Below are positions 17,297-57,448 of a stretch of DNA of 64,000 nucleotides, one piece after another (positions within the stretch are counted from its first letter, which is position 1; each line of letters opens with the position of its first letter). The DNA lies in assembly GCF_017301635.1 (NCBI RefSeq), contig NZ_CP071091.1, positions 2,492,001 to 2,556,000 on the forward strand, read 5' to 3'. This DNA is from Myxococcus landrumus. Its GTDB lineage: Bacteria; Myxococcota; Myxococcia; Myxococcales; Myxococcaceae. Under the pieces are notes generated by a model. It was not told the DNA's origin. It was given only the letters and a program-made list of their open reading frames with translations, and searched no databases. The position numbers and the translations under genes are program-made.

Positions 17297-18448
17297 CTAC
17301 AAGCCCAGCTGCTTGGCGATGATTTCGTTCATCACCTCGCTGGCCCCGCCGCCGATGGGCCCCAGGCGAGCGTCCCGCCAGTGCCGCTGGATGTCGTACT
17401 CCATCATGTAGCCCGCGCCCCCGTGGAGCTGGAGGCACTCGTCGGCAATCCGGCAGGCCGTCTCCGTGGCCACCTTCTTGGCCATGGACGTCTGGGCCAC
17501 CGCCCACTCGCCCGCCGCGTGCAGGCGCAGCGCGTGGTAGGTGAGCTGGCGCGCGCACTCCCGGGCGGTGAACAGGTCCGCGAGCTTGTGCCGGACCACC
17601 TGGAGCTGGCTGAGCGATTGGCCGAAGGCGCGGCGCGACTTCACGTGCTCGACGACCCGCTCCAGCATGTCGTCCATGGAGCCCACGGCCCCGAGCGCGA
17701 GCGACAGCCGCTCCCACTGGAAGTTGCCCATGATTTGCGAGAAGCCCTGATTCTCCACGCCCAGCAGGTTCTCCGCGGGGACGCGGCAATCCTCCAGGAA
17801 GAGCTCCGCGGTGTCCGAGGCCCGCCACCCCAGCTTCTTCAGCTTGCGGCCGACGGTGAAGCCCGGGGTGCCCTTCTCCACCACCAACATGGACAAGCCC
17901 TTGTGGCCAGCGGAGGCATCCGTCTTCACCGCCAGCACCACGAAGTCCGCGCGAACGCCGTTGGTGATGTACGTCTTGGAGCCGTTGACGACGTAGTGCG
18001 CACCCTCGAGGCGCGCCGTGGTGCGCAGCCCCGCCACGTCCGAGCCCGCGTCGGGCTCGGTGATGCCGAGCGCGCCAATCTTCTCGCCTCGAATCGCGGG
18101 GGCCAACCAGCGGTGCTTCTGCTCATCCGTCCCGAACAGGTTCAGCGGCCCGGTGGAGATGGTGAACTGCGCCCCCAGACCCGCGGACACCCCACCTGAG
18201 CCACAGCGCCCCAGCTCCTCCAGCAGCACGGCCTCATAGAGCGAGCCCGCGTCGGTGCCGCCGTACTCCACGGGGTACTTCAAGCCCAGGAAGCCCAGTT
18301 CGCCAAAGCGCGTGAAGAGTTCCCGAGGAAACTCCTCCGCCTCCTCCCACCCGGACACGAAGGGGAGAATCTCCTTCTCCACCACCGCCCTCACCGTGTG
18401 GCGAAAGGACTCGTGCTCCTCCTGGTACAGCCCATGGCCATGCAGCAT
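17297..18448 (-). CDS. Acyl-CoA dehydrogenase
   Basis: A 383-residue FAD-dependent acyl-CoA dehydrogenase, from ATG 18448 behind GAGGGG. The order is an N-terminal helical domain, the middle beta-domain with ALGITEPDAGSDVAGLRTTA and YITNGVRADFVVLAV, and the C-terminal four-helix domain with SRRAFGQSLSQLQ and LHGGAGYMMEYDIQR. The end reads IGGGASEVMNEII: the position of the MCAD catalytic Glu (usual YEGT) is Gly, as in long-chain-type enzymes that keep the base on another helix. Chain-length preference cannot be read. It could act in fatty-acid or branched-chain amino-acid degradation. Confidence 0.92.
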   Translation of the reverse strand: MLHGHGLYQEEHESFRHTVRAVVEKEILPFVSGWEEAEEFPRELFTRFGELGFLGLKYPVEYGGTDAGSLYEAVLLEELGRCGSGGVSAGLGAQFTISTGPLNLFGTDEQKHRWLAPAIRGEKIGALGITEPDAGSDVAGLRTTARLEGAHYVVNGSKTYITNGVRADFVVLAVKTDASAGHKGLSMLVVEKGTPGFTVGRKLKKLGWRASDTAELFLEDCRVPAENLLGVENQGFSQIMGNFQWERLSLALGAVGSMDDMLERVVEHVKSRRAFGQSLSQLQVVRHKLADLFTARECARQLTYHALRLHAAGEWAVAQTSMAKKVATETACRIADECLQLHGGAGYMMEYDIQRHWRDARLGPIGGGASEVMNEIIAKQLGL

Positions 18449-48082: not shown

Positions 48083-48724
48083 TCAGTCCTCGCCGGACTC
48101 GGGACGGACGCGACTGGACTTGCCGAACGTGTCGAGCAGCGCGTTCCAGACCTCGTCCACGCCCCGCGGCTCCGTCGAGGAGAACGGCAGGATGGCCTCC
48201 ATGGGCAGGTCCAGCTGCTTCGACAGCTCCACCATGCGGGGGCGCGTCTTGGCCTTGGTGAGGCGGTCGATCTTCGTGGCCACCACCATCACCTTGCGCT
48301 TGTGCGCCTGGAGATAGTCGAGCGTGGCGAGGTCATCCGGCGTGGGCCCCACCTCCGCGTCGATGATGCTCACCACCACCTCCAGGCGATGACGCTTCTC
48401 CAGGTAGGTGGTGATCATCTTCTCCCACTGGGCCTTGTCCGCCTTGCTCGCGCGGGCGAAGCCATACCCCGGCAAGTCACACAGGCGGACCTGGTGACGG
48501 ATGGAGCCTCGCTCCAGGTCCACGTCGAAGAAGTTGAGCGTGCGGGTGCGGCCCGGGGTGTTGGACACGCGCACCAGCTTCTTGCGGGCGGTGAGCGTGT
48601 TGATCATGGAGGACTTGCCCACGTTGGAGCGGCCCACGAAGGCCACTTCGGCGGTATGTCCCTGTGGATAGCCCTTGGGCTCCACGGCGGTGATGACAAA
48701 GCGTGCGTCGAGAATCTTGATCAC
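48083..48724 (-). CDS. engB: Ribosome-assembly GTPase EngB (YsxC/YihA)
   Basis: A 213-residue TRAFAC GTPase that assists assembly of the 50S subunit. It has G1 GRSNVGKSSMINTL (about 28-41), the G2 threonine in NTPGRTRTLNF, G3 DLPGYGFA (about 81-88), G4 TKIDRL (about 143-148) and the C-terminal FSSTEPRGVDEVW. The length is typical. Confidence 0.96.
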   Translation of the reverse strand: MIKILDARFVITAVEPKGYPQGHTAEVAFVGRSNVGKSSMINTLTARKKLVRVSNTPGRTRTLNFFDVDLERGSIRHQVRLCDLPGYGFARASKADKAQWEKMITTYLEKRHRLEVVVSIIDAEVGPTPDDLATLDYLQAHKRKVMVVATKIDRLTKAKTRPRMVELSKQLDLPMEAILPFSSTEPRGVDEVWNALLDTFGKSSRVRPESGED

Positions 48725-48728
48725 GCGG

Positions 48729-49241
48729 CTATTTCTTCGCGGTGGTGGTGGGAGGGGTTGTCACGGGAGCAGACGCCTCGGTGCGGGCCGCGCGACGGGC
48801 GCGCTCCGCGGACCAGTGGTCGATGGCCTTCAGGGACTCCTTGAAGTCGAACGGCCGCAAGGAGGGCGAGGAAGCGTCATGGCAGGAGCGGCACTGCTTT
48901 TCCGACGGGTCCACCAACCCCACCAGCCGCGCCAGCTCCGGGTCCTTCATCACGTACTCAGGCGAGTAGTACTGCCCCCCTCCGTGACATGTCTCACAGC
49001 TCACACTGGCCTGCTGCTGCGCCACCTGGTCCGGCGAGTGGCACGACAGGCACCGGCCGTCCTTCTGCTGCTGCTCGGACAGGGAGCTCACCGCACGGGC
49101 GTGCTTGGACTGCATCCACGCCTCGTAGGCCTCCGGGTGGCAGCCCTTGCAGCTGTCGGCGCCGACGAAATCCGCCGCTCCGGCCGCGCCACAAAGGGCC
49201 AGCAGGAGGACGGGCAGGACCCTGAAGCCAGATGCGCGCAT
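48729..49241 (-). CDS. Exported tetraheme cytochrome c
   Basis: A 170-residue protein with signal peptide MRASGFRVLPVLLLALCGAAGA. Four CxxCH heme-binding sites are present: CKGCH, CLSCH, CETCH and CRSCH. Spacing and the YEAWMQSKHARAV segment resemble cytochrome c554/NrfB-like small multiheme proteins that carry electrons in the periplasm. It is 4 bp upstream of engB, which is unlikely to be a functional link. The redox partner is not in the window. Confidence 0.9.
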   Translation of the reverse strand: MRASGFRVLPVLLLALCGAAGAADFVGADSCKGCHPEAYEAWMQSKHARAVSSLSEQQQKDGRCLSCHSPDQVAQQQASVSCETCHGGGQYYSPEYVMKDPELARLVGLVDPSEKQCRSCHDASSPSLRPFDFKESLKAIDHWSAERARRAARTEASAPVTTPPTTTAKK

Positions 49242-49372
49242 GGCTCGCGGAGTAGCAGACCCCCCCGGACGGGGCAAGGCGTCTCGTGGTTGAATGCCTG
49301 TCGGAATCGTCCGTTGAAAGAGAGGGCAGCGCTTGAGCCCCGCCCGCCCTTTCCATTAGGGAGGAAGTCGTG

Positions 49373-49840
49373 ATGAGGACTCTGACCGCGCTCGCCGTAT
49401 TCGCCCTGGCCTTCCCCGCTGCCGCCAAGCCCTGGCAGGGCGTGGAGCCTGGCGTCACCAAGAAGGACGAAGTCATCAAGAAGTTCGGCGAGCCCTCGCG
49501 AACCGTGAGCCAGGACGGCAAGGAGACCATCGCCTACCTGGGCAAGGAGGCCATCAAGGGCACCAGCCAGGCCCAGTTCAAGGTGGACCCCACCTCGCAG
49601 CTCATCGAGCGCATCGACGTCTTCCCCGGGCCGGTCATCGACAAGGAGACCATCGAGACCAGCTACGGCCCCGCCTGCCCCTCCGGCCCCGTGCCCGCGG
49701 CCCCGTGCTACCAGCGCAAGCTCACCGACGACTTCCGCACCTACTTCCTCTACCCCAAGCTGGGGCTGGCCATCTTCTTCAACGAGGACGGCAAGACGGT
49801 GCAGTCGTTCACGTTCACCACCCAGAAGGCCGCGAAGTAG
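49373..49840 (+). CDS. Exported protein of unknown function
   Basis: A 155-residue protein with signal peptide MRTLTALAVFALAFPAAA and AAKP cleavage region, behind a GGAGG site. It begins KPWQGVEPGVTKKDEVIKKF, which resembles the opening of SmpA/OmlA-like or BamE-like domains (a short helix after a GxxKxxVxxxxG motif). A cysteine pair lies near residue 107 (CPSGPVPAAPC). Family membership is tentative. It is divergent from the cytochrome gene and 10 bp upstream of coaE. Confidence 0.72.
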   Translation: MRTLTALAVFALAFPAAAKPWQGVEPGVTKKDEVIKKFGEPSRTVSQDGKETIAYLGKEAIKGTSQAQFKVDPTSQLIERIDVFPGPVIDKETIETSYGPACPSGPVPAAPCYQRKLTDDFRTYFLYPKLGLAIFFNEDGKTVQSFTFTTQKAAK

Positions 49841-49850
49841 GTCCCCCACC

Positions 49851-50447
49851 GTGCACGTCTTCGGGCTGACGGGGGGAATCGCATCCGGCAAGAGCACCGT
49901 CACGCGGATGCTCCGGGAGCTGGGCGCGGAGGTCATCGACGCGGACGTGCTGGCCCGGCAGGTGGTGGAGCCCGGCACGCCGGGCCTCGCCTCCATCGCG
50001 GAGCGCTTCCCGGGCGTGATTGGCCCGGACGGGCGGTTGGACCGGGCGAAGCTGGCGGCGCGCGTCTTCGGCAACGAGGCCGAGCGCACCGCGCTCAACG
50101 CCATCACTCACCCGCGCGTGCGCGAGGCCTTCCTTGAGAAGCTCCAGTTCCTGGAGGAGCGAGGCGTGGCGCGCGCCGTCTACGACGTGCCGCTGCTCAT
50201 CGAGGCGGGGATGCACCACTGGCTGGAAGGGGTGGCCCTGGTGTGGGTGCCCCGGGAGCAGCAGAAGGCGCGGCTGATGGCGCGTGACGGGCTGGACGAG
50301 GCGGCGGCCGAGGCCCGGCTGGCGTCCCAGCTCCCCCTGGATGACAAGCGGACACACGCGACGTGGGTCATCGACAACAGCGGGGACCTGGCGGCCACGC
50401 GAGCCCAGGTGGAAACAGTCTGGCGCGCCATGCTCGCGCGCGGCTGA
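49851..50447 (+). CDS. coaE: Dephospho-CoA kinase
   Basis: A 198-residue P-loop kinase that carries out the last step of coenzyme A synthesis, phosphorylating the 3'-OH of dephospho-CoA. It starts at GTG 49851 with VHVFGLTGGIASGKSTVTRM (P-loop 6-16). It then has ELGAEVIDADVLARQVVEPG (about 20-40) and YDVPLLIEAGM near 112. The length is typical. Confidence 0.96.
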   Translation: MHVFGLTGGIASGKSTVTRMLRELGAEVIDADVLARQVVEPGTPGLASIAERFPGVIGPDGRLDRAKLAARVFGNEAERTALNAITHPRVREAFLEKLQFLEERGVARAVYDVPLLIEAGMHHWLEGVALVWVPREQQKARLMARDGLDEAAAEARLASQLPLDDKRTHATWVIDNSGDLAATRAQVETVWRAMLARG

Positions 50448-50470
50448 CGGACGGGTATGCTGCGCGCGCA

Positions 50471-51601
50471 ATGAGCGAGACGCGCAAGAAGGCCGGCGCC
50501 GGGACGTACTTCGTCACGGGTTACCCAGGGTTCATCGGCAAGCGGCTGGTGGAGCACATCGCCCGGGAGGACCCGAAGGGCCACATCTACGCGCTGGTCC
50601 AGCCCAAGGCGCTCAAGGAGGCCCAGAAGCACGCGGCCCGCCTGAAGGGCGCCGCCGTGGAGCTGCTCACCGGCGACGTGGTGGACATGCACCTGGGCCT
50701 GTCCGGCGAAGAGTACCAGCGCCTGTGCGAGCGGGTGACGGACATCTTCCACCTGGCAGCCGTCGCGCAGCTGGGCGTGCCCAAGGACACCGCGTGGCGT
50801 GTCAACGTGGACGGCACGCGCAACATGCTGGAGCTGGCGCGCGACTGTGAGCACCTGGCGCGCTTCAACCACTTCTCCACCTGCTACGTGTCCGGAGACC
50901 GGCTGGGCGTCATCGCCGAGGACGAGCTGGACCGGGGCCAGGGCTTCCGCAACCCCTACGAGGAGACGAAGTTCCAGGCGGAGCGGCTCGTCACCCGCGC
51001 GGGCGCCACCCTGCCCGTCACCATCTACCGGCCGTCCAGCGTGGTGGGTGACTCGCGCACGGGCGAAATCGACAAGTTCGAGGGGCCCTACTACCTGGGC
51101 ATCCTGCTCGTCACCTCGCCGCTGGTGGTGCCGCTGCCCCTGCCCGGCAACGGCGTGGCGCCGCTCAACGTGGTGCCCGTGGACTTCGTGGTGGAGGCGG
51201 TGTGGCGGCTGTCGAAGGACCCGCGTGCCGTGGGCCGCACCTTCCACCTGGTGGACCCCAACCCCATGAGCGCGCGCCGCGTGTACGAGCTCATCGCGGA
51301 GAAGGCCAACAAGAAGCTGCCCCGCTTCAACCTGTCCGCGCGCGCCGCCGATGTCATGTTGCGGCTGCCGCTGCTGGAGAAGCTGGCCCGCCCCCAGCGG
51401 GCCGCCATCAGCTACGTCAACCACCTGGCCATCTACAACTGCCACAACACGCTGGAGCTGCTGGACGGCACGGGTGTCCGCTGCCCTCCCCTGTCCTCGT
51501 ATCTGGACCAGCTGGTGGCCTACGTGCGGGAGCAGTACCGCAAGCGCCGCGAGGGCTCCGAGGTGGAAGACCCGCTGGACCAGGGCACGGCCACCGGGTG
51601 A
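50471..51601 (+). CDS. Extended SDR oxidoreductase, fatty-acyl-reductase-like
   Basis: A 376-residue NAD(P)-dependent extended short-chain dehydrogenase. The dinucleotide motif TYFVTGYPGFIGKRLVEHI is at about residues 12-30. The catalytic pair is YxxxK in NPYEETKFQAERLV near 160. The C-terminal half has YRPSSVVGDSRTGEIDKFEG and hydrophobic helices. The pattern is closest to NAD-binding-4/fatty-acyl-CoA reductase-like or sterol-type SDRs. It lies 23 bp after coaE and 48 bp before two hot-dog genes, so a lipid substrate is plausible. Confidence 0.82.
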   Translation: MSETRKKAGAGTYFVTGYPGFIGKRLVEHIAREDPKGHIYALVQPKALKEAQKHAARLKGAAVELLTGDVVDMHLGLSGEEYQRLCERVTDIFHLAAVAQLGVPKDTAWRVNVDGTRNMLELARDCEHLARFNHFSTCYVSGDRLGVIAEDELDRGQGFRNPYEETKFQAERLVTRAGATLPVTIYRPSSVVGDSRTGEIDKFEGPYYLGILLVTSPLVVPLPLPGNGVAPLNVVPVDFVVEAVWRLSKDPRAVGRTFHLVDPNPMSARRVYELIAEKANKKLPRFNLSARAADVMLRLPLLEKLARPQRAAISYVNHLAIYNCHNTLELLDGTGVRCPPLSSYLDQLVAYVREQYRKRREGSEVEDPLDQGTATG

Positions 51602-51649
51602 GTTGTCGCGGGTGACGCGGGGCGAGGCCGTGATAGACCGGAAGGCCTC

Positions 51650-52045
51650 ATGGCACGCTCCTTTCAGGTAGGCGATACCTTCACGCACGTCCGCGAGTGC
51701 GACGTGTACCGGCCCATCTTCTACGCGGGCGCATCCGGCGACTTCAATCCCATCCACATCGACCCGGAGGTCGGCAAGGTGGCCGGCCTCGACGGCGTCA
51801 TCCTCCAGGGGCTCTGCACGCTGGGCTGGGCGGTGGAAGCCGTCGCCGTCTTCGTGGGCGACCCGGGCCGCATCCGCAAGGTGAAGGTCCGCTTCTCGCG
51901 CCCCGTTCGCCCCGAGGACACCGTCACCTTCGCGGGCCGCGTCACCGCCATCGAAGCAGGCCGGCTCACCACCGAAGTCACCGCCACCAACCAGCGCGGC
52001 GAGGCCGTCCTCAAGGGCGCCGTCGTCGAAGCCTCCATCGGATAA
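51650..52045 (+). CDS. MaoC-type hydratase (hot-dog fold), HadB-like
   Basis: A 131-residue R-specific hydratase. The catalytic motif is ASGDFNPIHIDPE near residues 28-40 with the Asp and His pair of hydratase 2. It continues with GLDGVILQGLCTLGWA and RFSRPVRPEDTVTFAG. Such proteins dehydrate (3R)-hydroxyacyl-CoA or -ACP. Together with the next gene it resembles the two-subunit HadAB dehydratase of mycobacterial fatty-acid synthesis. Whether it makes or breaks acyl chains is not known. Confidence 0.87.
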   Translation: MARSFQVGDTFTHVRECDVYRPIFYAGASGDFNPIHIDPEVGKVAGLDGVILQGLCTLGWAVEAVAVFVGDPGRIRKVKVRFSRPVRPEDTVTFAGRVTAIEAGRLTTEVTATNQRGEAVLKGAVVEASIG

Positions 52046-52050
52046 TCACC

Positions 52051-52530
52051 ATGGCCATCGACAAGCGCTTCATCGGCCGGGAGTACGGCCCCTTCACGTA
52101 TACGATTGGCGCGGAGAAGCTGCGCGAGTTCACCCTGGCCGTGGGCGGTGCGCACCCCGCCGCCGGAACTCCGGGCGAGCCGCCCGCTCACGTCAGCCCC
52201 CTCCTCTACGACGACCAGGCCGCCAAGGCGGGCCCCTATGGGGACTTGATTGCCTTCCCCAGCTTCGCCGTCGTCTTCGCCATCCGCCCGTTCGCCACCG
52301 CCGTCGCGGACCCGGAGCTCAACCTGAACCTGCTGATGCTCGTGCACGGTGAGCAGGAGCTGGAGTTCCTGGACGTCATGCGCCCGGGCGATGTGATGAC
52401 GACCACGGGCCGCATCTCGGACGCCTACGAGAAGGCGGGCAAGCAGTTCCTCATCGCCACCACTGAGTCGCGCAACCAGCGCGGCGACCTCGTGGTGAAG
52501 GGCACCTGGACCGCCGTCATCCGGGGGTAG
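52051..52530 (+). CDS. FAS1-type dehydratase subunit, HadA-like
   Basis: A 159-residue hot-dog protein beginning MAIDKRFIGREYGPFTYTIG at ATG 52051, five bp after the previous stop. It has the HadA/FAS1_DH features VSPLLYDDQAAKAGPYGDLIAFPSFAVV and MRPGDVMTTTGRISDAYEK. It lacks the D-F-N-P-I-H catalytic motif, as expected of the non-catalytic partner of a MaoC subunit. The two genes should be cotranslated as a heterodimer. Confidence 0.87.
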   Translation: MAIDKRFIGREYGPFTYTIGAEKLREFTLAVGGAHPAAGTPGEPPAHVSPLLYDDQAAKAGPYGDLIAFPSFAVVFAIRPFATAVADPELNLNLLMLVHGEQELEFLDVMRPGDVMTTTGRISDAYEKAGKQFLIATTESRNQRGDLVVKGTWTAVIRG

Positions 52531-52549
52531 TTGCCCGCCCGCGCCACGT

Positions 52550-52579
52550 GAGGCCAGGGGCTCGACGGCTCCTGGCCTC
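52550..52579. terminator. Hairpin between convergent hydratase and VOC genes
   Basis: GAGGCCAGGGGC (52550-52561) pairs with GCTCCTGGCCTC (52568-52579) with one mismatch around six bases. Its position between convergent genes suggests a bidirectional terminator, although no T-run is present. Confidence 0.55.
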
Positions 52580-52605
52580 CTCGCCCGGTCCGCGAGGTGT
52601 CGTGG

Positions 52606-53325
52606 CTACGTCTCGGCCTCGAGGAAACTCTGGACCGCGGCGTGTTCCTCCCGCAGCGAGGTCCGCTCCGAGGCGGAGAGCTCCAACGCCTCGAACTCGC
52701 GAAGCCACTCACGCGCACGGCTCGGGCCCGACAGCACCACGGCGAGCTCCGCGCTGGCCAGGAGCACCCGGGCCCGCTCCAGCATCGTCCCGCCGCCCGG
52801 CTTCTTCAGCGCGCCCTCGAGCACCTTCGCGGCCATCGCGTCATCCCCCTTGAAGTCACGCAAGCGGCGCGCGGTCTTGAGGGCCTTGCCCAACGCGGAG
52901 GCAGGCTGAGCCTCCGTGTCGACGTCATCGTCGCCATACCCGTCGGGCTCATCCTTCCGGATGAACATCACCGAGTTCCCATTCGGGTCGACGACCGTGA
53001 AGCGGGACTGCCCCTTCTTCATCCGGGTGATTCGCGGCACGCCGCGCAACGGAACCTTCCCGTAGCCCTGACGGAAGGCTTCGGAGAACTCCTCGTGCAG
53101 CTTCTCCACCTCGTTCACGATGATGAGACAGACGCTGTAGGCGGCCGCCGGGTCCAACCCCTTCACACCGAAGAAGTGGAGCTGCGCGCCACGGCGATTC
53201 GTGGCCGCATAGGGATTGGGCGCTCGCTGCTGATACGTCGTCTTGAAGCCCAGCCGGCCGTAGAACTCGAGGGTCGCCCCCAGCTCGACGCAAGGGAGGG
53301 CGGGGATGCTGGAATCACGGTGCAT
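52606..53325 (-). CDS. VOC-family (glyoxalase/bleomycin-resistance-like) protein with helical C-terminus
   Basis: A 239-residue protein. Residues 1-125 form a vicinal-oxygen-chelate module with ALPCVELGATLEFYGRLGF near 8, AQLHFFG and RFTVVDPNGNSVMFIRK. The remaining 110 residues are helical and charged (ALGKALKTARRLRDFKG, ARVLLASAELAVVLSGPSRA), possibly TPR-like. The family covers glyoxalases, dioxygenases and drug-binding proteins, so the substrate is open. The helical extension is not part of usual VOC resistance proteins. Confidence 0.8.
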   Translation of the reverse strand: MHRDSSIPALPCVELGATLEFYGRLGFKTTYQQRAPNPYAATNRRGAQLHFFGVKGLDPAAAYSVCLIIVNEVEKLHEEFSEAFRQGYGKVPLRGVPRITRMKKGQSRFTVVDPNGNSVMFIRKDEPDGYGDDDVDTEAQPASALGKALKTARRLRDFKGDDAMAAKVLEGALKKPGGGTMLERARVLLASAELAVVLSGPSRAREWLREFEALELSASERTSLREEHAAVQSFLEAET

Positions 53326-53435
53326 GGAGACACCTCACGCGGGCCGCGCGCGCGGACACACTTCCAAGGGCGTGCGACACGCCATCAAACTGTCATCATG
53401 ACAGGAGGCTGTCAATCCGACTTTCGAGCCCCGGC

Positions 53436-54245
53436 TCAGGCCGCGGCGATGACACCTTCGTCGAGGAGCTGCGCGAGGATGCGAGCGGTATCCAGTCGCG
53501 TCATCCCCGACAGAGAGAACACGTCCTCGAACGTCACCGCGCCATCAATCTGCGCGAGCACGAAGCCCGCGCGGTGGTCCAGGCTGAGCCAGATGATGTC
53601 ATCGGGCTGGAGTCGAACCCGAGGCACCCGGCCCAGGTCTCCAAGCTTCGACTCGAGCATGCTCATCAGCATCCGCTCGCTGCGAGCACGGAGCGCTTCG
53701 ACGCGAGGGTCTCCCGGTGCCAGCTCCTGCGCCTTGAAGAGCAGGTCCACCGCGCCCGAGTGGTCATCCAGCTCCAACAGGTCCGTCGCGCCCCGGAGCA
53801 GACGCTCCAGCTCGTTCTCCCCCAGGGGGACGCCGTACTCGTCGGTGTCGCCCTCGGGGACGCCGAACTCCTGGGTCGTGGGCCCGTCATCGCGGGCCAG
53901 CAGGGCCAGCACGTCGCTTCCGGGGACGGGCTCGTCGAACTCCGGTAACAACACGCTGGGAGAACGCTCCTCGTCTTCTTCCTCCAGCGGGCCACCCTCT
54001 CCCTCGGCCCACGCGCCCCAGTCGCCCTCCAGGGACGCCAACGGAGCGACGTCCGAGGAAGCACTCGTCAGCGAAGCGCCCCGCCCCACCGGCGAGTCCA
54101 GCGAGGCCAGGGCCTCACGCGCGCGGACGTTGCCTGAGTCCAACACGAGCGCCCGTTCGAACAGCTTGCGCGCCCCCTGCGGGTCGCCACTGAGGCGCAG
54201 CCACTGTCCCGCCTCGACGAGCTGGTTGGCGCGCTCCGTGGTCAT
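53436..54245 (-). CDS. TPR protein with C-terminal winged-helix-like domain
   Basis: A 269-residue protein that starts directly after the hsp70 stop codon (54246). The N-terminal TPR (about 1-48) has GQWLRLSGDPQGARKLFERA. An acidic low-complexity linker (55-130) and a second TPR-like segment (RGATDLLELDDHSGAVDLLF) follow. The last 65 residues (VRLQPDDIIWLSLDHRAGFV onward, with GAVTFEDVFSLSGMTRLD) form a small helix-strand domain of the kind seen in myxobacterial PATAN-related proteins. No signal peptide. Its place ties it to the Hsp70 and J-TPR protein. Confidence 0.8.
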   Translation of the reverse strand: MTTERANQLVEAGQWLRLSGDPQGARKLFERALVLDSGNVRAREALASLDSPVGRGASLTSASSDVAPLASLEGDWGAWAEGEGGPLEEEDEERSPSVLLPEFDEPVPGSDVLALLARDDGPTTQEFGVPEGDTDEYGVPLGENELERLLRGATDLLELDDHSGAVDLLFKAQELAPGDPRVEALRARSERMLMSMLESKLGDLGRVPRVRLQPDDIIWLSLDHRAGFVLAQIDGAVTFEDVFSLSGMTRLDTARILAQLLDEGVIAAA

Positions 54246-56087
54246 CTAGCTCCCCATGCCGCCTCGCGCGGCGCCCTTGAGGCTGGCCAGGCATCCCGCG
54301 AGCAGCTCGCAGGCGCGGCCCAGCGCTCCGGTGTCCTCTCCCGCGCGAACGCGCCGCGCATGCTCCAGCACCTGCTCCGCGCGAGGCACTACGTCGGGAG
54401 CCAACCCGCCGCCACCGGGCAGGAGTCTCGCGCGGGTCAACGCGTCCATGACGTCGCGCGCGAGCGTGTCCAGCTCCACGCGCTTGGACTTCAGCTCCTC
54501 GGAGATGCGCGCGGCCATCAGATAGCCCCGCTGCTCGTCCATGATGCGCTTGAGTTCCTCCTCGGTGAGGCCGCTGGAGGCGGTGACGGTGATGGACTGG
54601 CGCAGGCCCGTCTCACGGTCCCTCGCGGAGACGGACACGATGCCCTCCGCGTTGATGTCGAACGTCACCTCGATTTCCACCTGCCCCTTCGGCGCCTCGC
54701 GAAGGCCCGTGAGGACGAACTCCCCCAGCAGCTCGTTCTGGTGCGCCTGCTCGTGCTCGCCTTGGAGCACCATGATCTTCACCAGGCGCTGGAAGTCCTT
54801 CGACGTCGCGAACACCTCCGTGGCGGACGTGGGCACCGTCGTGTTCTTCGGGATGATGCGCCGCACGTAGCCACCGGCGATGGCCACCCCGAGGCTCTGC
54901 GGGGTGACATCCAGCAGCAGCAGCTCGCCCTCCTGCGCCACCAGCGCATGCGCTTGAATCGCCGCGCCCAGGGCCACCACTTCGTCGGGGTGCACGCCCT
55001 TGCATGGCTCGCGGCGGAAGTAGGTGCGCACGGCCTCGACGACCTTGGGCATGCGGGACATGCCGCCCACCAGGATGACTTCCTTCAACTCCGACGCGCG
55101 CACGCCCGCTTCACCGAGCACCTCCGTGGTGATGCCCACCACGCGCTCGGCCAGGTCCGAGGTCAGCTCCTCCAGCTTCTCCCGCGACAGCGCGGCCTGA
55201 AGGTGCAGCGCTGCGCCGGCACCGGGAGGAGTGCTGATGAACGGCAGGTTGAGCTGCGTCTCGCGCACGCTGGACAGCTCCACCTTGGCCTTCTCCGCCG
55301 CGTCCTTGAGCCGCTGCAAGGCCATCCGGTCCTTGCGCAAGTCGATGCCGTGCTCCTTCGCGAAGCCGAAGACGAGCCACTCGATGATGCGGTTGTCCCA
55401 GTCCTCGCCGCCCAGGTACGTGTCGCCGCCGGTGCCCACCACGTCGAAGACGCCCTGATTGATTTCCAGCACCGACACGTCGAAGGTGCCGCCGCCCAGG
55501 TCCAGCACCGCCACGCGGCCGTTCACCGTGCGGCTGAAGCCATACGCGAGCGCCGCCGCCGTGGGCTCGTTGATGATGCGCAGCACCTCCAGGCCCGCGA
55601 TGCGGCCCGCGTCCTTGGTGGCCTGCCGCTGGGCATCGTTGAAGTATGCCGGCACCGTGACGACGGCCTTGCTCACCGGACGGCCGAAGTGCGCCTCCGC
55701 GTCCGCCCTCAGCTCCTGGAGAATCATGGCGCTGAGCTCGGGAACGGCCAGGTCCTTGCCGCCCATGCGGATGCGCAGGTCGTCGTGCTGTCCCGCCACC
55801 ACTTCGTAGGGCAGCGTGCGAAGCGCGTCCTGCACCTCGTGCGAGGAGAACTTCCGGCCGATGAGCCGCTTCGCCGCGTACACCGTCTCCTGCGGGTTGG
55901 TGATGGCCTGGCGCTTGGCGATGCCGCCCACCAGGCGCTTGCCGTTCTTCGACACCGCCACCACCGAAGGCGTCAGCGTCTGGCCCGTGCGGTTCTTGAT
56001 GACGACCGGCTGCCCGTCCTGGACGGTGGCGACGATGCTGTTCGTCGTCCCCAGGTCGATGCCAATCAGAGGTTCGGACTCAGCCAT
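54246..56087 (-). CDS. Hsp70 chaperone (DnaK paralogue)
   Basis: A 613-residue Hsp70. The ATPase domain has [12 protein letters not shown] (9-20), the linker-side [12 protein letters not shown] and [12 protein letters not shown], and [13 protein letters not shown]. The substrate domain has the [18 protein letters not shown] linker (about 375-392) and [21 protein letters not shown]. The C-terminal lid is short and lacks the acidic EEVD-type tail of housekeeping DnaK. The gene context has J and TPR partners but no grpE. I infer a dedicated paralogue; housekeeping DnaK is normally in a grpE-dnaK-dnaJ locus. M. xanthus has such extra Hsp70s, for example one needed for social motility. Confidence 0.93.
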
Positions 56088-56104
56088 GGCAGAGCGTGTC
56101 CATC

Positions 56105-57448
56105 CTAGAACGTCCAGCGCAGCTTCTTGAGCGCCGCCTTGGCCTCGGCGTTGTCCGGCTCCAACTTCGCAGCATCTTCGAACACTCGCTTGGCCAGCTT
56201 CTTGGACCCGGCATCCATGAGAATCCGCCCCAACAACAGATGGTGCTCAATCCGAGCACCCTGAAGGTCCACGGCCCTCTGCGCCAGCGCGCGAATTTCA
56301 CCCACGTCCTGGCCCTGCTGAAGCCCCTGCTTCGCCGCGCGATACGCGGCCTCCGCGTTGGCCCCATCCAGCGAGTACGCCAGCCGGAACGCCGCCAGCG
56401 CCGCCACGTCGTCGCCGTGCTGCTCCAGCTCACGCCCTCGAGACACCTCGACGGCCGCGCGCTGCTCGTCATGCTTCTTGCGGGCCTCGAGGAGCAGCGT
56501 CGCCACCTCGCGGTTCTTCGGGTCCAGCGTCTGCACCTGGTGGAAGTCCTGGTACGCCCGCTCCCAGTCCCCCCGAGCCACCGCCGCCTTGCCCCGCGCC
56601 ACCAGCTCCGAGAGCTTCACGTTGCGCGCCATGTACGGATGGCGAGCAAGCCGGGCCTGACGCTCCGCGCGCCGGGCCTCCGACTCCGCGTCGTTCACCG
56701 GTGCGGGCGTGGGAGGAGGCGGCGCGGAGACCGGCGTGGGACGCGTCAACGAGCGCGGCACGGGGGTGAGCGGCGTCAGCTCCATTGCGGGGTACGACGC
56801 GGCGGAGGCCGGGGCGGGCGAAGCTGCGGGGGCAACGGGCGCGGGCGTGGAGGACTGCCCGAGCGCCGGGTGGGCCTTGAGGTACGCCTCGCGCTTGTCC
56901 TGCTGCGTGAGGACGTTGTGCGCGTCGGTCAGCCTCCGGAAGATGCGCTCCATGCGCGCGCGGAAGCTGCCCAGGTTCTTTCCGAAGTAGCGGTCCGGGT
57001 GAAAGCGGCGCGATGCGTTGTAGTACGCCTGCTTCGCCTCGGCCGCGGGCGCACCGGGTCGCAGCCCCAGGACGGCGAAGTGATCCATCCCGTCCAAGGC
57101 CCGCTCCAGGTCGATGATCTCCTTCTTCCGCTCCGGCTCCAGGTCCACTTCCTCGGCCAGGGCCGCGTCGACCGCGGGAGCGGGCTGGTTCCTGGGCACC
57201 ACGCGCGCGGGGACGATGGCGCCCTTCGCGCGCAGCGACAGCAGCACCGCGATGGTGCGGGCCTCACCCAGGGTGGAACGTGACAGCACCAGCTCGATAC
57301 GCTCCACGCGCCCGACGAGTGACAGCACCGCGCTCTCCTCCGGCGTGAGCTGGAGGCGAGCGGGGTCCACGTTGGGCACTGTGGCGATGTGGTCTGTCCG
57401 AGCCCCCAGGCCGACAATCGTGTTTGGCGCGCTCACAGGACGGTCCAC
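56105..57448 (-). CDS. J-domain and TPR protein with N-terminal winged-helix-like domain
   Basis: A 447-residue protein. Residues about 33-80 (LQLTPEESAVLSLVGRVERI, then LGEARTIAVLLSLRAKGAI) form a small domain similar to the C-terminus of the TPR protein at 53436. The J domain spans about 118-190 with HPD at 150-152 in RRFHPDRYF. A Pro/Ala linker follows, then a TPR array (about 285-440) with MARNVKLSELVARGKAAVA and AALAAFRLAYSLDGANAE. It should recruit clients and stimulate the Hsp70 encoded 17 bp downstream. The start is a GTG without a clear ribosome site, so the N-terminus may be a few residues different. Confidence 0.85.
   Translation of the reverse strand: MDRPVSAPNTIVGLGARTDHIATVPNVDPARLQLTPEESAVLSLVGRVERIELVLSRSTLGEARTIAVLLSLRAKGAIVPARVVPRNQPAPAVDAALAEEVDLEPERKKEIIDLERALDGMDHFAVLGLRPGAPAAEAKQAYYNASRRFHPDRYFGKNLGSFRARMERIFRRLTDAHNVLTQQDKREAYLKAHPALGQSSTPAPVAPAASPAPASAASYPAMELTPLTPVPRSLTRPTPVSAPPPPTPAPVNDAESEARRAERQARLARHPYMARNVKLSELVARGKAAVARGDWERAYQDFHQVQTLDPKNREVATLLLEARKKHDEQRAAVEVSRGRELEQHGDDVAALAAFRLAYSLDGANAEAAYRAAKQGLQQGQDVGEIRALAQRAVDLQGARIEHHLLLGRILMDAGSKKLAKRVFEDAAKLEPDNAEAKAALKKLRWTF

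What the first reader, a model, noticed from the sequence alone, without database searches (positions are those of the whole stretch)
50471..52530. Acyl-reductase-like SDR followed by a HadA/HadB-like dehydratase pair
Three genes read rightward after coaE: an extended SDR (50471), a MaoC-type hydratase (51650) with the catalytic DFNPIH motif and a FAS1-type partner (52051) without it. The 5-bp gap between the two hot-dog genes argues for a heterodimer, as in the mycobacterial HadAB dehydratase. A reductase plus dehydratase module could make or modify long or unusual acyl chains, for example for myxobacterial lipids. The function is not known to me.
Basis: partly seen in the sequence, partly recalled or inferred. 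Interest (0 to 1): 0.5.

Follow-up and report, generated by a model that had tools for sequence, protein, structure and literature searches.

The report
Myxobacterial reductase and split dehydratase genes
Three neighbouring genes encode a probable acyl or aldehyde reductase and a two-part enzyme that adds or removes water on fatty-acid-like chains; all are recognisable variants of known enzymes, and they look like two separate units rather than one pathway.

Summary
The three genes are real and at the stated coordinates. The hot-dog genes encode a HadB-like catalytic subunit (Asp, Asn and His kept in 99 of 99 aligned rows) and a dead HadA-like partner (model matches HadA best, Z 15.7), so the heterodimer reading is well supported. 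The pair is not curated HadAB: both subunits score far below NCBIfam cut-offs. Its nearest kin outside the window's order are uncharacterised pairs, 28 of 46 with an acyl-CoA dehydrogenase gene upstream, which suggests a CoA-linked enoyl hydratase. The myxobacterial pair is a distinct variant: reversed gene order, and a 24-27-residue loop where other partners have a 12-residue vestigial active site. The SDR is thioester-reductase/FAR-like, not a sugar epimerase. "One module" is not supported: the SDR is widespread in Myxococcota (104 of 146 genomes at E<=1.5e-103) and sits behind coaE (28 of 32 chosen ortholog loci); 40 of those 104 genomes lack the dehydratase; in 27 of 64 genomes with both, the usual 0.4-0.6 kb between SDR and partner is 0.9-7.2 kb. 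Best reading: two neighbouring units, coaE-SDR and an (R)-specific enoyl-thioester hydratase/dehydratase, substrates unknown. Modest interest.

The parts
49851..50447 (+). coaE, dephospho-CoA kinase; usual upstream neighbour of the SDR (gap 23 bp here)
   Evidence: Pfam CoaE 5.2e-58; same strand within 131 bp of the SDR in 28 of 32 ortholog loci chosen (five more distant SDR loci without coaE left out, see full report)
50471..51601 (+). single-domain extended SDR of the thioester-reductase / fatty-acyl-reductase type (resembles the N-terminal half of PRK07201)
   Evidence: Pfam NAD_binding_4 5e-50; NCBIfam NF005539 261 bits, cut-off 549, residues 12-360; PDB best MxaA 2.6e-27; 104 of 146 Myxococcota genomes at E<=1.5e-103
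50957..50971 (+). SDR catalytic Y163-x3-K167
   Evidence: invariant in the 11 sequences of A1; of the window plus 16 coaE-type orthologs Lys in 17 of 17, Tyr in 16 of 17 (L184 has Val)
51650..52045 (+). HadB-like catalytic MaoC hot-dog subunit
   Evidence: Pfam MaoC_dehydratas 3.8e-23; NCBIfam HadB 69 bits, below cut-off 203; PDB best hits HadB, 4.4e-16
51740..51757 (+). catalytic D31-F-N33-P-I-H36
   Evidence: D, N and H in 99 of 99 aligned rows
52051..52530 (+). HadA-like non-catalytic hot-dog partner
   Evidence: Pfam FAS1_DH_region 1.1e-22; NCBIfam HadA 49 bits, below cut-off 180; model pLDDT 89, best match HadA 8y21_D Z 15.7, rmsd 2.5 over 140 residues
52138..52215 (+). residues 30-55 of the partner: 26-residue Gly/Pro-rich stretch in place of the 12-residue vestigial active-site segment of other partners
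   Evidence: 24-27 residues in 26 of 27 myxobacterial rows (17 in L175); 12 in 68 of 72 other rows, the other 4 are gapped there

Best explanation
Two neighbouring units. Unit 1 is coaE plus the SDR: the SDR binds a nicotinamide cofactor and uses Ser/Thr-Tyr-Lys to reduce an acyl thioester to aldehyde and/or an aldehyde to alcohol, whether or not the dehydratase is there. Unit 2 is a heterodimeric (R)-specific 2-enoyl-thioester hydratase / (3R)-hydroxyacyl-thioester dehydratase: the 131-aa subunit supplies Asp31 and His36, the 159-aa partner the acyl-binding groove, one active site per dimer as in HadAB or ChsH1-ChsH2. Its kinship suggests CoA esters rather than ACP thioesters. In the window's order the partner's vestigial second site was replaced by a longer loop. 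Shown here: gene content, motifs, predicted fold of the partner, phylogeny, linkage. Inferred: heterodimer formation, stereochemistry, CoA preference, direction of reaction, reductase activity. Substrates are unknown.
For: Family and PDB matches; HadA-like fold of the partner; catalytic residues in 99 of 99 catalytic subunits, motif in 0 of 99 partners; the two subunits adjacent in 27 of 27 myxobacterial rows; outside the order, acyl-CoA dehydrogenase upstream in 28 of 46 loci, thiolase in 22 and OB-fold gene in 22 of 46 held stretches (families checked on representatives); the tree places the myxobacterial pairs with these and apart from curated HadAB; a FabA/FabZ-family gene elsewhere in the genome; SDR without dehydratase in 40 of 104 genomes and coaE-SDR linkage; two haloarchaeal SDR relatives directly follow a gene annotated as succinic semialdehyde dehydrogenase.
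Against: In 63 of 64 genomes with both, SDR and partner are on one contig within 7.2 kb, so a functional tie is not excluded; conserved gene order around them could explain it. In L166, one of three sister rows that lie outside the order, a distant SDR relative (32%) stands beside the pair on the other strand. The nearest characterised structures are ACP-type HadAB, not ChsH. No acyl-CoA dehydrogenase, thiolase or OB-fold gene was found in the 29 myxobacterial and sister loci; the window has one acyl-CoA dehydrogenase, 33 kb away. The SDR model failed (pLDDT 44). L184 lacks the catalytic Tyr and the distant relatives L166 and L185 lack Tyr and Lys.
Confidence: 0.6

Rival explanations
1. First reader's module: the SDR and the HadAB-like dehydratase act in series to build or modify long or unusual acyl chains for myxobacterial lipids.
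For: SDR and partner 0.4-0.6 kb apart in 36 of 64 genomes with both, and on one contig in 63 of 64; nearest solved structures are the chain-elongating HadAB; a distant SDR relative also lies beside the pair in L166.
Against: SDR without the dehydratase in 40 of 104 genomes, dehydratase without SDR in 4 of 68 (in L021 the pair follows coaE directly); SDR-partner distance 0.9-7.2 kb in 27 of 64, one scanned insert being an M36 metallopeptidase; no SDR relative in the held stretch of the 46 outside loci.
Confidence: 0.2
2. Catabolic: the pair is a beta-oxidation hydratase for bulky or branched acyl-CoAs, like ChsH1-ChsH2, and the SDR is unrelated.
For: Outside the order, acyl-CoA dehydrogenase upstream in 28 of 46 loci, thiolase and OB-fold genes in 22 of 46 each.
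Against: No such gene in the 29 myxobacterial and sister loci; ChsH subunits score far below HadA and HadB against the same profiles; that the outside clusters are catabolic is itself inferred.
Confidence: 0.3
3. True HadAB ortholog making long chains in a FAS-II elongation system.
For: Best solved-structure matches.
Against: 69 bits against HadB cut-off 203 and 49 against HadA cut-off 180; the four curated HadAB rows form their own set (100) outside the 67-row set (99) that holds the myxobacterial pairs; reversed gene order.
Confidence: 0.08
4. The SDR is a fatty-acyl reductase of ether-lipid (plasmalogen) synthesis.
For: FAR-like family; the review PMC9131029 (passages) says that M. xanthus makes ether lipids and an iso-15:0 aldehyde and that most steps are uncharacterised.
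Against: The same review assigns FAR-like domains to ElbD and MXAN_1675; the window SDR groups apart from most of the genome's other NAD_binding_4 matches, in a tree with many long branches.
Confidence: 0.1

Closest known systems
Mycobacterial HadAB (3R)-hydroxyacyl-ACP dehydratase (PDB 4rlj, 8y21)
   Same: one catalytic MaoC subunit plus one dead hot-dog partner in adjacent genes; partner model matches HadA best, Z 15.7
   Different: catalytic gene first; below curated cut-offs; separate in the tree; 26-residue stretch in the partner where curated HadA rows have 12
ChsH1-ChsH2 steroid side-chain hydratase and its ACAD/thiolase/OB setting
   Same: heteromeric MaoC hydratase; many outside kin of the window pair lie near ACAD, thiolase and ChsH2-type OB-fold genes
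   Different: weak sequence match, about 1e-10 and 5e-4; no such genes near the pair in 29 myxobacterial and sister loci
Uncharacterised FAS1DH-MaoC pairs of Syntrophaceae, Spirochaetota, Actinomycetota and other MAGs (L024-L069)
   Same: nearest relatives outside the order: 34-49% (partner) and 37-58% (MaoC) identity, L067 lower with 26% and 37%
   Different: FAS1DH gene first in 44 of 46; short vestigial active-site segment
PRK07201 two-domain SDR (NCBIfam NF005539; that mycobacterial FCR1/Rv3391 belongs here is recalled)
   Same: window SDR aligns with the N-terminal half, 261 bits
   Different: no C-terminal domain, the part of FCR1 annotated as acyl-CoA reductase (PMC3522743, passages); LVQ where L220 has LVR
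Thioester reductase domains (MxaA, PDB 4u7w)
   Same: best PDB match, 2.6e-27
   Different: stand-alone gene; TIGR01746 126 bits against cut-off 213

Membership tests
HadAB (NCBIfam NF010246 HadB / NF040624 HadA) | score above curated cut-off | tested here: not met
   69.4 of 203 bits and 49.3 of 180 bits
HadAB (NCBIfam NF010246 HadB / NF040624 HadA) | groups with curated HadAB in a tree | tested here: not met
   concatenated tree of 99 rows, quick method, SH-aLRT only; outside rows were found by similarity to the window partner, which favours their grouping with it
HadAB (NCBIfam NF010246 HadB / NF040624 HadA) | dehydrates (3R)-hydroxyacyl-ACP as a heterodimer | not testable with these tools
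   needs biochemistry
MaoC / hydratase 2 superfamily, two-subunit type | catalytic D-x-N-x-x-H in one subunit, absent from the adjacent hot-dog partner | tested here: met
   99 of 99 catalytic subunits, 0 of 99 partners; Pfam; partner fold
ChsH1-ChsH2 / ACAD-linked hydratases | gene cluster with acyl-CoA dehydrogenase, thiolase and OB-fold genes | tested here: not met
   no tblastn match to representatives in 29 myxobacterial and sister loci; in the window one ACAD, 33 kb away
Thioester reductase / fatty-acyl reductase SDR (Pfam NAD_binding_4) | NAD_binding_4 above gathering score, glycine motif, S/T-Y-K | tested here: met
   170.5 bits, cut-off 20.1; motifs
PRK07201 (NF005539) | full-length two-domain match above cut-off | tested here: not met
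   261 of 549 bits, N-terminal half only; Tsukamurella protein in L220 scores 941
Sugar epimerase / dehydratase SDRs | score above curated cut-off of a named sugar family | tested here: not met
   HpnA 49 of 368, GalE 23 of 262 bits

The most novel reading that the evidence does not exclude
A hydratase/dehydratase peculiar to the window's order, in which the dead partner's vestigial active site was rebuilt into a long loop that sets a new substrate range (for example iso-branched acyl-CoAs), recruited next to a phylum-wide coaE-linked acyl or aldehyde reductase so that the two together make a reduced, hydroxylated or unsaturated acyl product not known from other bacteria.
Probability: 0.12. 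Interest if true: 0.6.

Novelty: new variant of a known kind. Interest (0 to 1): 0.33.

Why it matters
It separates two questions that were mixed: a widely conserved Myxococcota reductase of unknown substrate beside coaE, and a HadAB-like dehydratase with a remodelled dead subunit. Both can be tested by gene removal in Myxococcus xanthus, and the loop offers a test of how the inert partner of two-subunit MaoC enzymes sets substrate choice.

Tried and rejected
SDR structure prediction from 11 close sequences gave pLDDT 44 and was not used for a fold search. Profile A3 gave HadB as best PDB match, but it held two actinobacterial HadB-type rows (L195, L197), so it was repeated without them as A4; HadB stayed first at 2.8e-25. 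The idea that the pair is the genome's only FAS-II-type dehydratase was dropped because a FabA/FabZ-family gene scores 1.2e-36 at C1:190723. A role in ether lipids was put low after passages of PMC9131029. The promoter and terminator scan found none (shuffle means 0.1 and 1.3) and tells nothing. The proteins of 304, 313 and 308 aa that follow the SDR in L017, L157 and L019 have no Pfam match at 0.001. Locus tags of the M. xanthus orthologs were not established; a search for six guessed tags, MXAN_3011 to MXAN_3016, listed two papers on DnaK, of which passages were read. Searches pairing Myxococcus xanthus with fatty acyl-CoA reductase (5 papers), with MaoC and dehydratase (2), and myxobacteria with dephospho-CoA kinase and reductase (0) listed no paper whose title or shown abstract concerns these genes; no wider claim about the literature is made. 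Relatives were found by similarity to the window's partner subunit, which biases the tree. Rows left out of the tree: L063 (no MaoC in the stretch) and duplicates L172, L173, L174, L216, L217. Left out of the coaE count: L166 and L185 (SDR 32% identical) and second copies L189, L190, L191, all without coaE in the stretch.

Full report
Observation. The window holds coaE (49851-50447), then three + strand genes: an extended SDR (50471-51601, 376 aa), a MaoC hot-dog protein (51650-52045, 131 aa) and a FAS1-type hot-dog protein (52051-52530, 159 aa). Pfam assigns NAD_binding_4 (5e-50), MaoC_dehydratas (3.8e-23) and FAS1_DH_region (1.1e-22). Codon scoring chose the same three genes.

Hot-dog pair. 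The 131-aa protein carries SGDFNPIH; Asp, Asn and His of the motif are present in 99 of 99 aligned catalytic subunits and the motif D.N..H in 0 of 99 partners. In single-sequence searches of solved structures the catalytic subunit matches mycobacterial HadB best (4.4e-16), ChsH at 4.5e-8; the partner's matches are weak, MFE-2 3e-4 and HadA 0.004. With profiles HadA leads for the partner (7.8e-21) and HadB for the catalytic subunit (2.8e-25, profile without HadB rows). An AlphaFold model of the partner (24 sequences, pLDDT 89) matches HadA best (8y21_D Z 15.7; then 1q6w_C 14.2, PhaJ 1iq6_A 13.8, ChsH 4wnb_B 13.3). So it probably works like a HadAB-type heterodimer. PMC11321319 (passages) describes the logic: in ChsH1-ChsH2 one subunit supplies the active-site housing and the other the binding pocket, and HadA or HadC bind the acyl chain for HadB.

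It is not a curated HadAB: 69 of 203 bits (HadB) and 49 of 180 bits (HadA). One search fetched 63 genome loci with relatives of the partner: L007-L023 (17) hold the window-type block (L013 is labelled Comamonas; L021 lacks the SDR) and L024-L069 (46) lie outside it; several of the 46 are labelled Deltaproteobacteria, which the tree tool prints as Myxococcota. I added four HadAB loci above the curated cut-off, found in 4 of 119 genomes of an actinobacterial phylum, and lower-scoring ones, stretches and the own second pair, and built a concatenated tree of 99 rows (quick method, SH-aLRT only, midpoint root). The 27 myxobacterial rows are one side of a branch (87). With three rows of another Myxococcota family (92) they lie in a 67-row set (99) with 24 rows that I had labelled as acyl-CoA-dehydrogenase neighbours and 13 further outside rows; the four HadAB rows lie outside it. 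By tblastn, the 46 outside loci have an acyl-CoA dehydrogenase gene upstream within 3.5 kb in 28 (two or more in 23), and in the held stretch a thiolase in 22, an OB-fold gene in 22 and an SDR relative in 0 (Pfam check on L044 and L034 representatives). Several stretches are cut by contig ends, so these are lower bounds. In one of ten such genomes an SDR relative was found elsewhere. In the 29 myxobacterial and sister loci no ACAD, thiolase or OB-fold match was found; the window has one ACAD at 17306-18427. This suggests an ancestral CoA-linked enoyl hydratase; that the outside clusters are catabolic is inferred.

What is special here. The catalytic gene comes first in 27 of 27 myxobacterial rows and in the three sister rows (L166, L187, L188), while the partner comes first in 44 of 46 outside loci; of the other two, L042 has the genes apart and L063 has no MaoC in the stretch. 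In the partner, the segment that corresponds to the vestigial active site (12 residues in 68 of 72 other rows, 4 gapped) is 24-27 residues long in 26 of 27 myxobacterial rows and 17 in L175. The sister rows have the reversed order but the short segment, so the order change came first if the tree is right.

SDR. It scores 261 bits with the N-terminal half of NF005539 (cut-off 549), 126 with the thioester-reductase model (cut-off 213), 49 with HpnA and 23 with GalE. The best solved structure is the MxaA thioester reductase (2.6e-27), then a polyketide-synthase chain (5.2e-16); a fatty acyl-CoA reductase and carboxylic acid reductases score lower. Of the window and 16 coaE-type orthologs, Lys167 is kept in 17 of 17 and Tyr163 in 16 of 17; the position after LV (LA in L183) is Gln or Glu in 17 of 17, while L074, L079, L220, L221 and L191 have Arg, which may shift cofactor preference (inference). 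In a tree of 35 rows the coaE-type SDRs group together (92, with L166 and L185 on long branches), next to two haloarchaeal SDRs and L189 (91); most of the genome's other NAD_binding_4 matches fall elsewhere (90), with many long branches. The two haloarchaeal relatives directly follow a gene annotated as succinic semialdehyde dehydrogenase, and one from Granulicella precedes an adenylate-forming enzyme gene. In the two-domain FCR1/Rv3391, which reduces acyl-CoA to aldehyde and alcohol, the C-terminal part is the one annotated as acyl-CoA reductase (PMC3522743, passages); that Rv3391 is a PRK07201 protein is recalled. The window protein resembles the other half, so aldehyde reduction is as likely as acyl-CoA reduction.

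Is it a module? In a sample of 146 Myxococcota genomes the SDR matches at E<=1e-40 in 116 and at E<=1.5e-103 in 104; the partner matches at E<1e-20 in 68 (both stricter cut-offs were mine). Both are found in 64, SDR alone in 40, partner alone in 4 (these 4 have no SDR match at 1e-40 either, though G009, which holds L166, has a distant SDR relative beside the pair). Of the 64, the SDR and the partner are 0.4-0.6 kb apart in 36 (room for MaoC only), 0.9-1.8 kb in 9, 5.9-7.2 kb in 18 and on different contigs in 1. Three of the 18 were opened (L152-L154): each has a gene of 1523-1705 aa in the gap; the one scanned is an M36 metallopeptidase. coaE lies on the same strand within 131 bp of the SDR in 28 of 32 ortholog loci that I chose, three of which repeat L018-L020; the exceptions are L160, L183 and L186 (1.0-2.7 kb) and L168 (contig edge). 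Left out are L166 and L185 (32% identical) and second copies L189-L191, none with coaE. In L007-L023 it holds for 16 of the 16 with an SDR. In L159, L170, L178, L181 and L182, which lack the dehydratase, the SDR is followed directly by relatives of the gene at 53436-54245 and of dnaK, which lie beyond the dehydratase here. So the dehydratase is best seen as an addition to a conserved block, absent from or lost in other lineages.

Judgement. The remaining novelty is moderate: a loop-remodelled, reordered HadAB-like variant, and a widely conserved coaE-linked reductase of unknown substrate.

Noticed in passing
L154 4925-9496; L152 4094-9211; L153 5311-10170: A gene of 1523-1705 aa lies between the SDR and the dehydratase in the 3 loci opened of 18 genomes with a 6-7 kb gap; the L154 one is an M36 fungalysin-type metallopeptidase with PA and PKD domains.
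   Followed up: partly
L017 3659-4573, L157 4676-5617, L019 3603-4529: Proteins of 304, 313 and 308 aa with no Pfam match follow the SDR in these three loci, two with and one (L157) without the dehydratase.
   Followed up: partly
window 48083-57448: engB, a cytochrome-like gene, coaE, SDR, a conserved gene (53436-54245), an Hsp70 (54246-56087) and the gene at 56105-57448 keep their order in many of the Myxococcota loci.
   Followed up: partly
L013: A record labelled Comamonas sp. KCTC 72670 carries a complete Myxococcus-type block and is probably mislabelled or contaminated.
   Followed up: no
G000 C1:258460-259178 (L002): The own genome has a second FAS1DH-MaoC pair, partner first, 26% and 37% identical to the window pair.
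   Followed up: no
L026-L068, upstream of many outside pairs: A recurrent cluster of thiolase, OB-fold protein, TetR-type regulator and acyl-CoA dehydrogenases beside FAS1DH-MaoC in Syntrophaceae, Spirochaetota and other MAGs; its substrate is unknown to me.
   Followed up: partly
L166 4642-6609: In another Myxococcota family a MaoC-first pair has a distant SDR relative (32%, catalytic Tyr and Lys not conserved) beside it on the opposite strand.
   Followed up: partly
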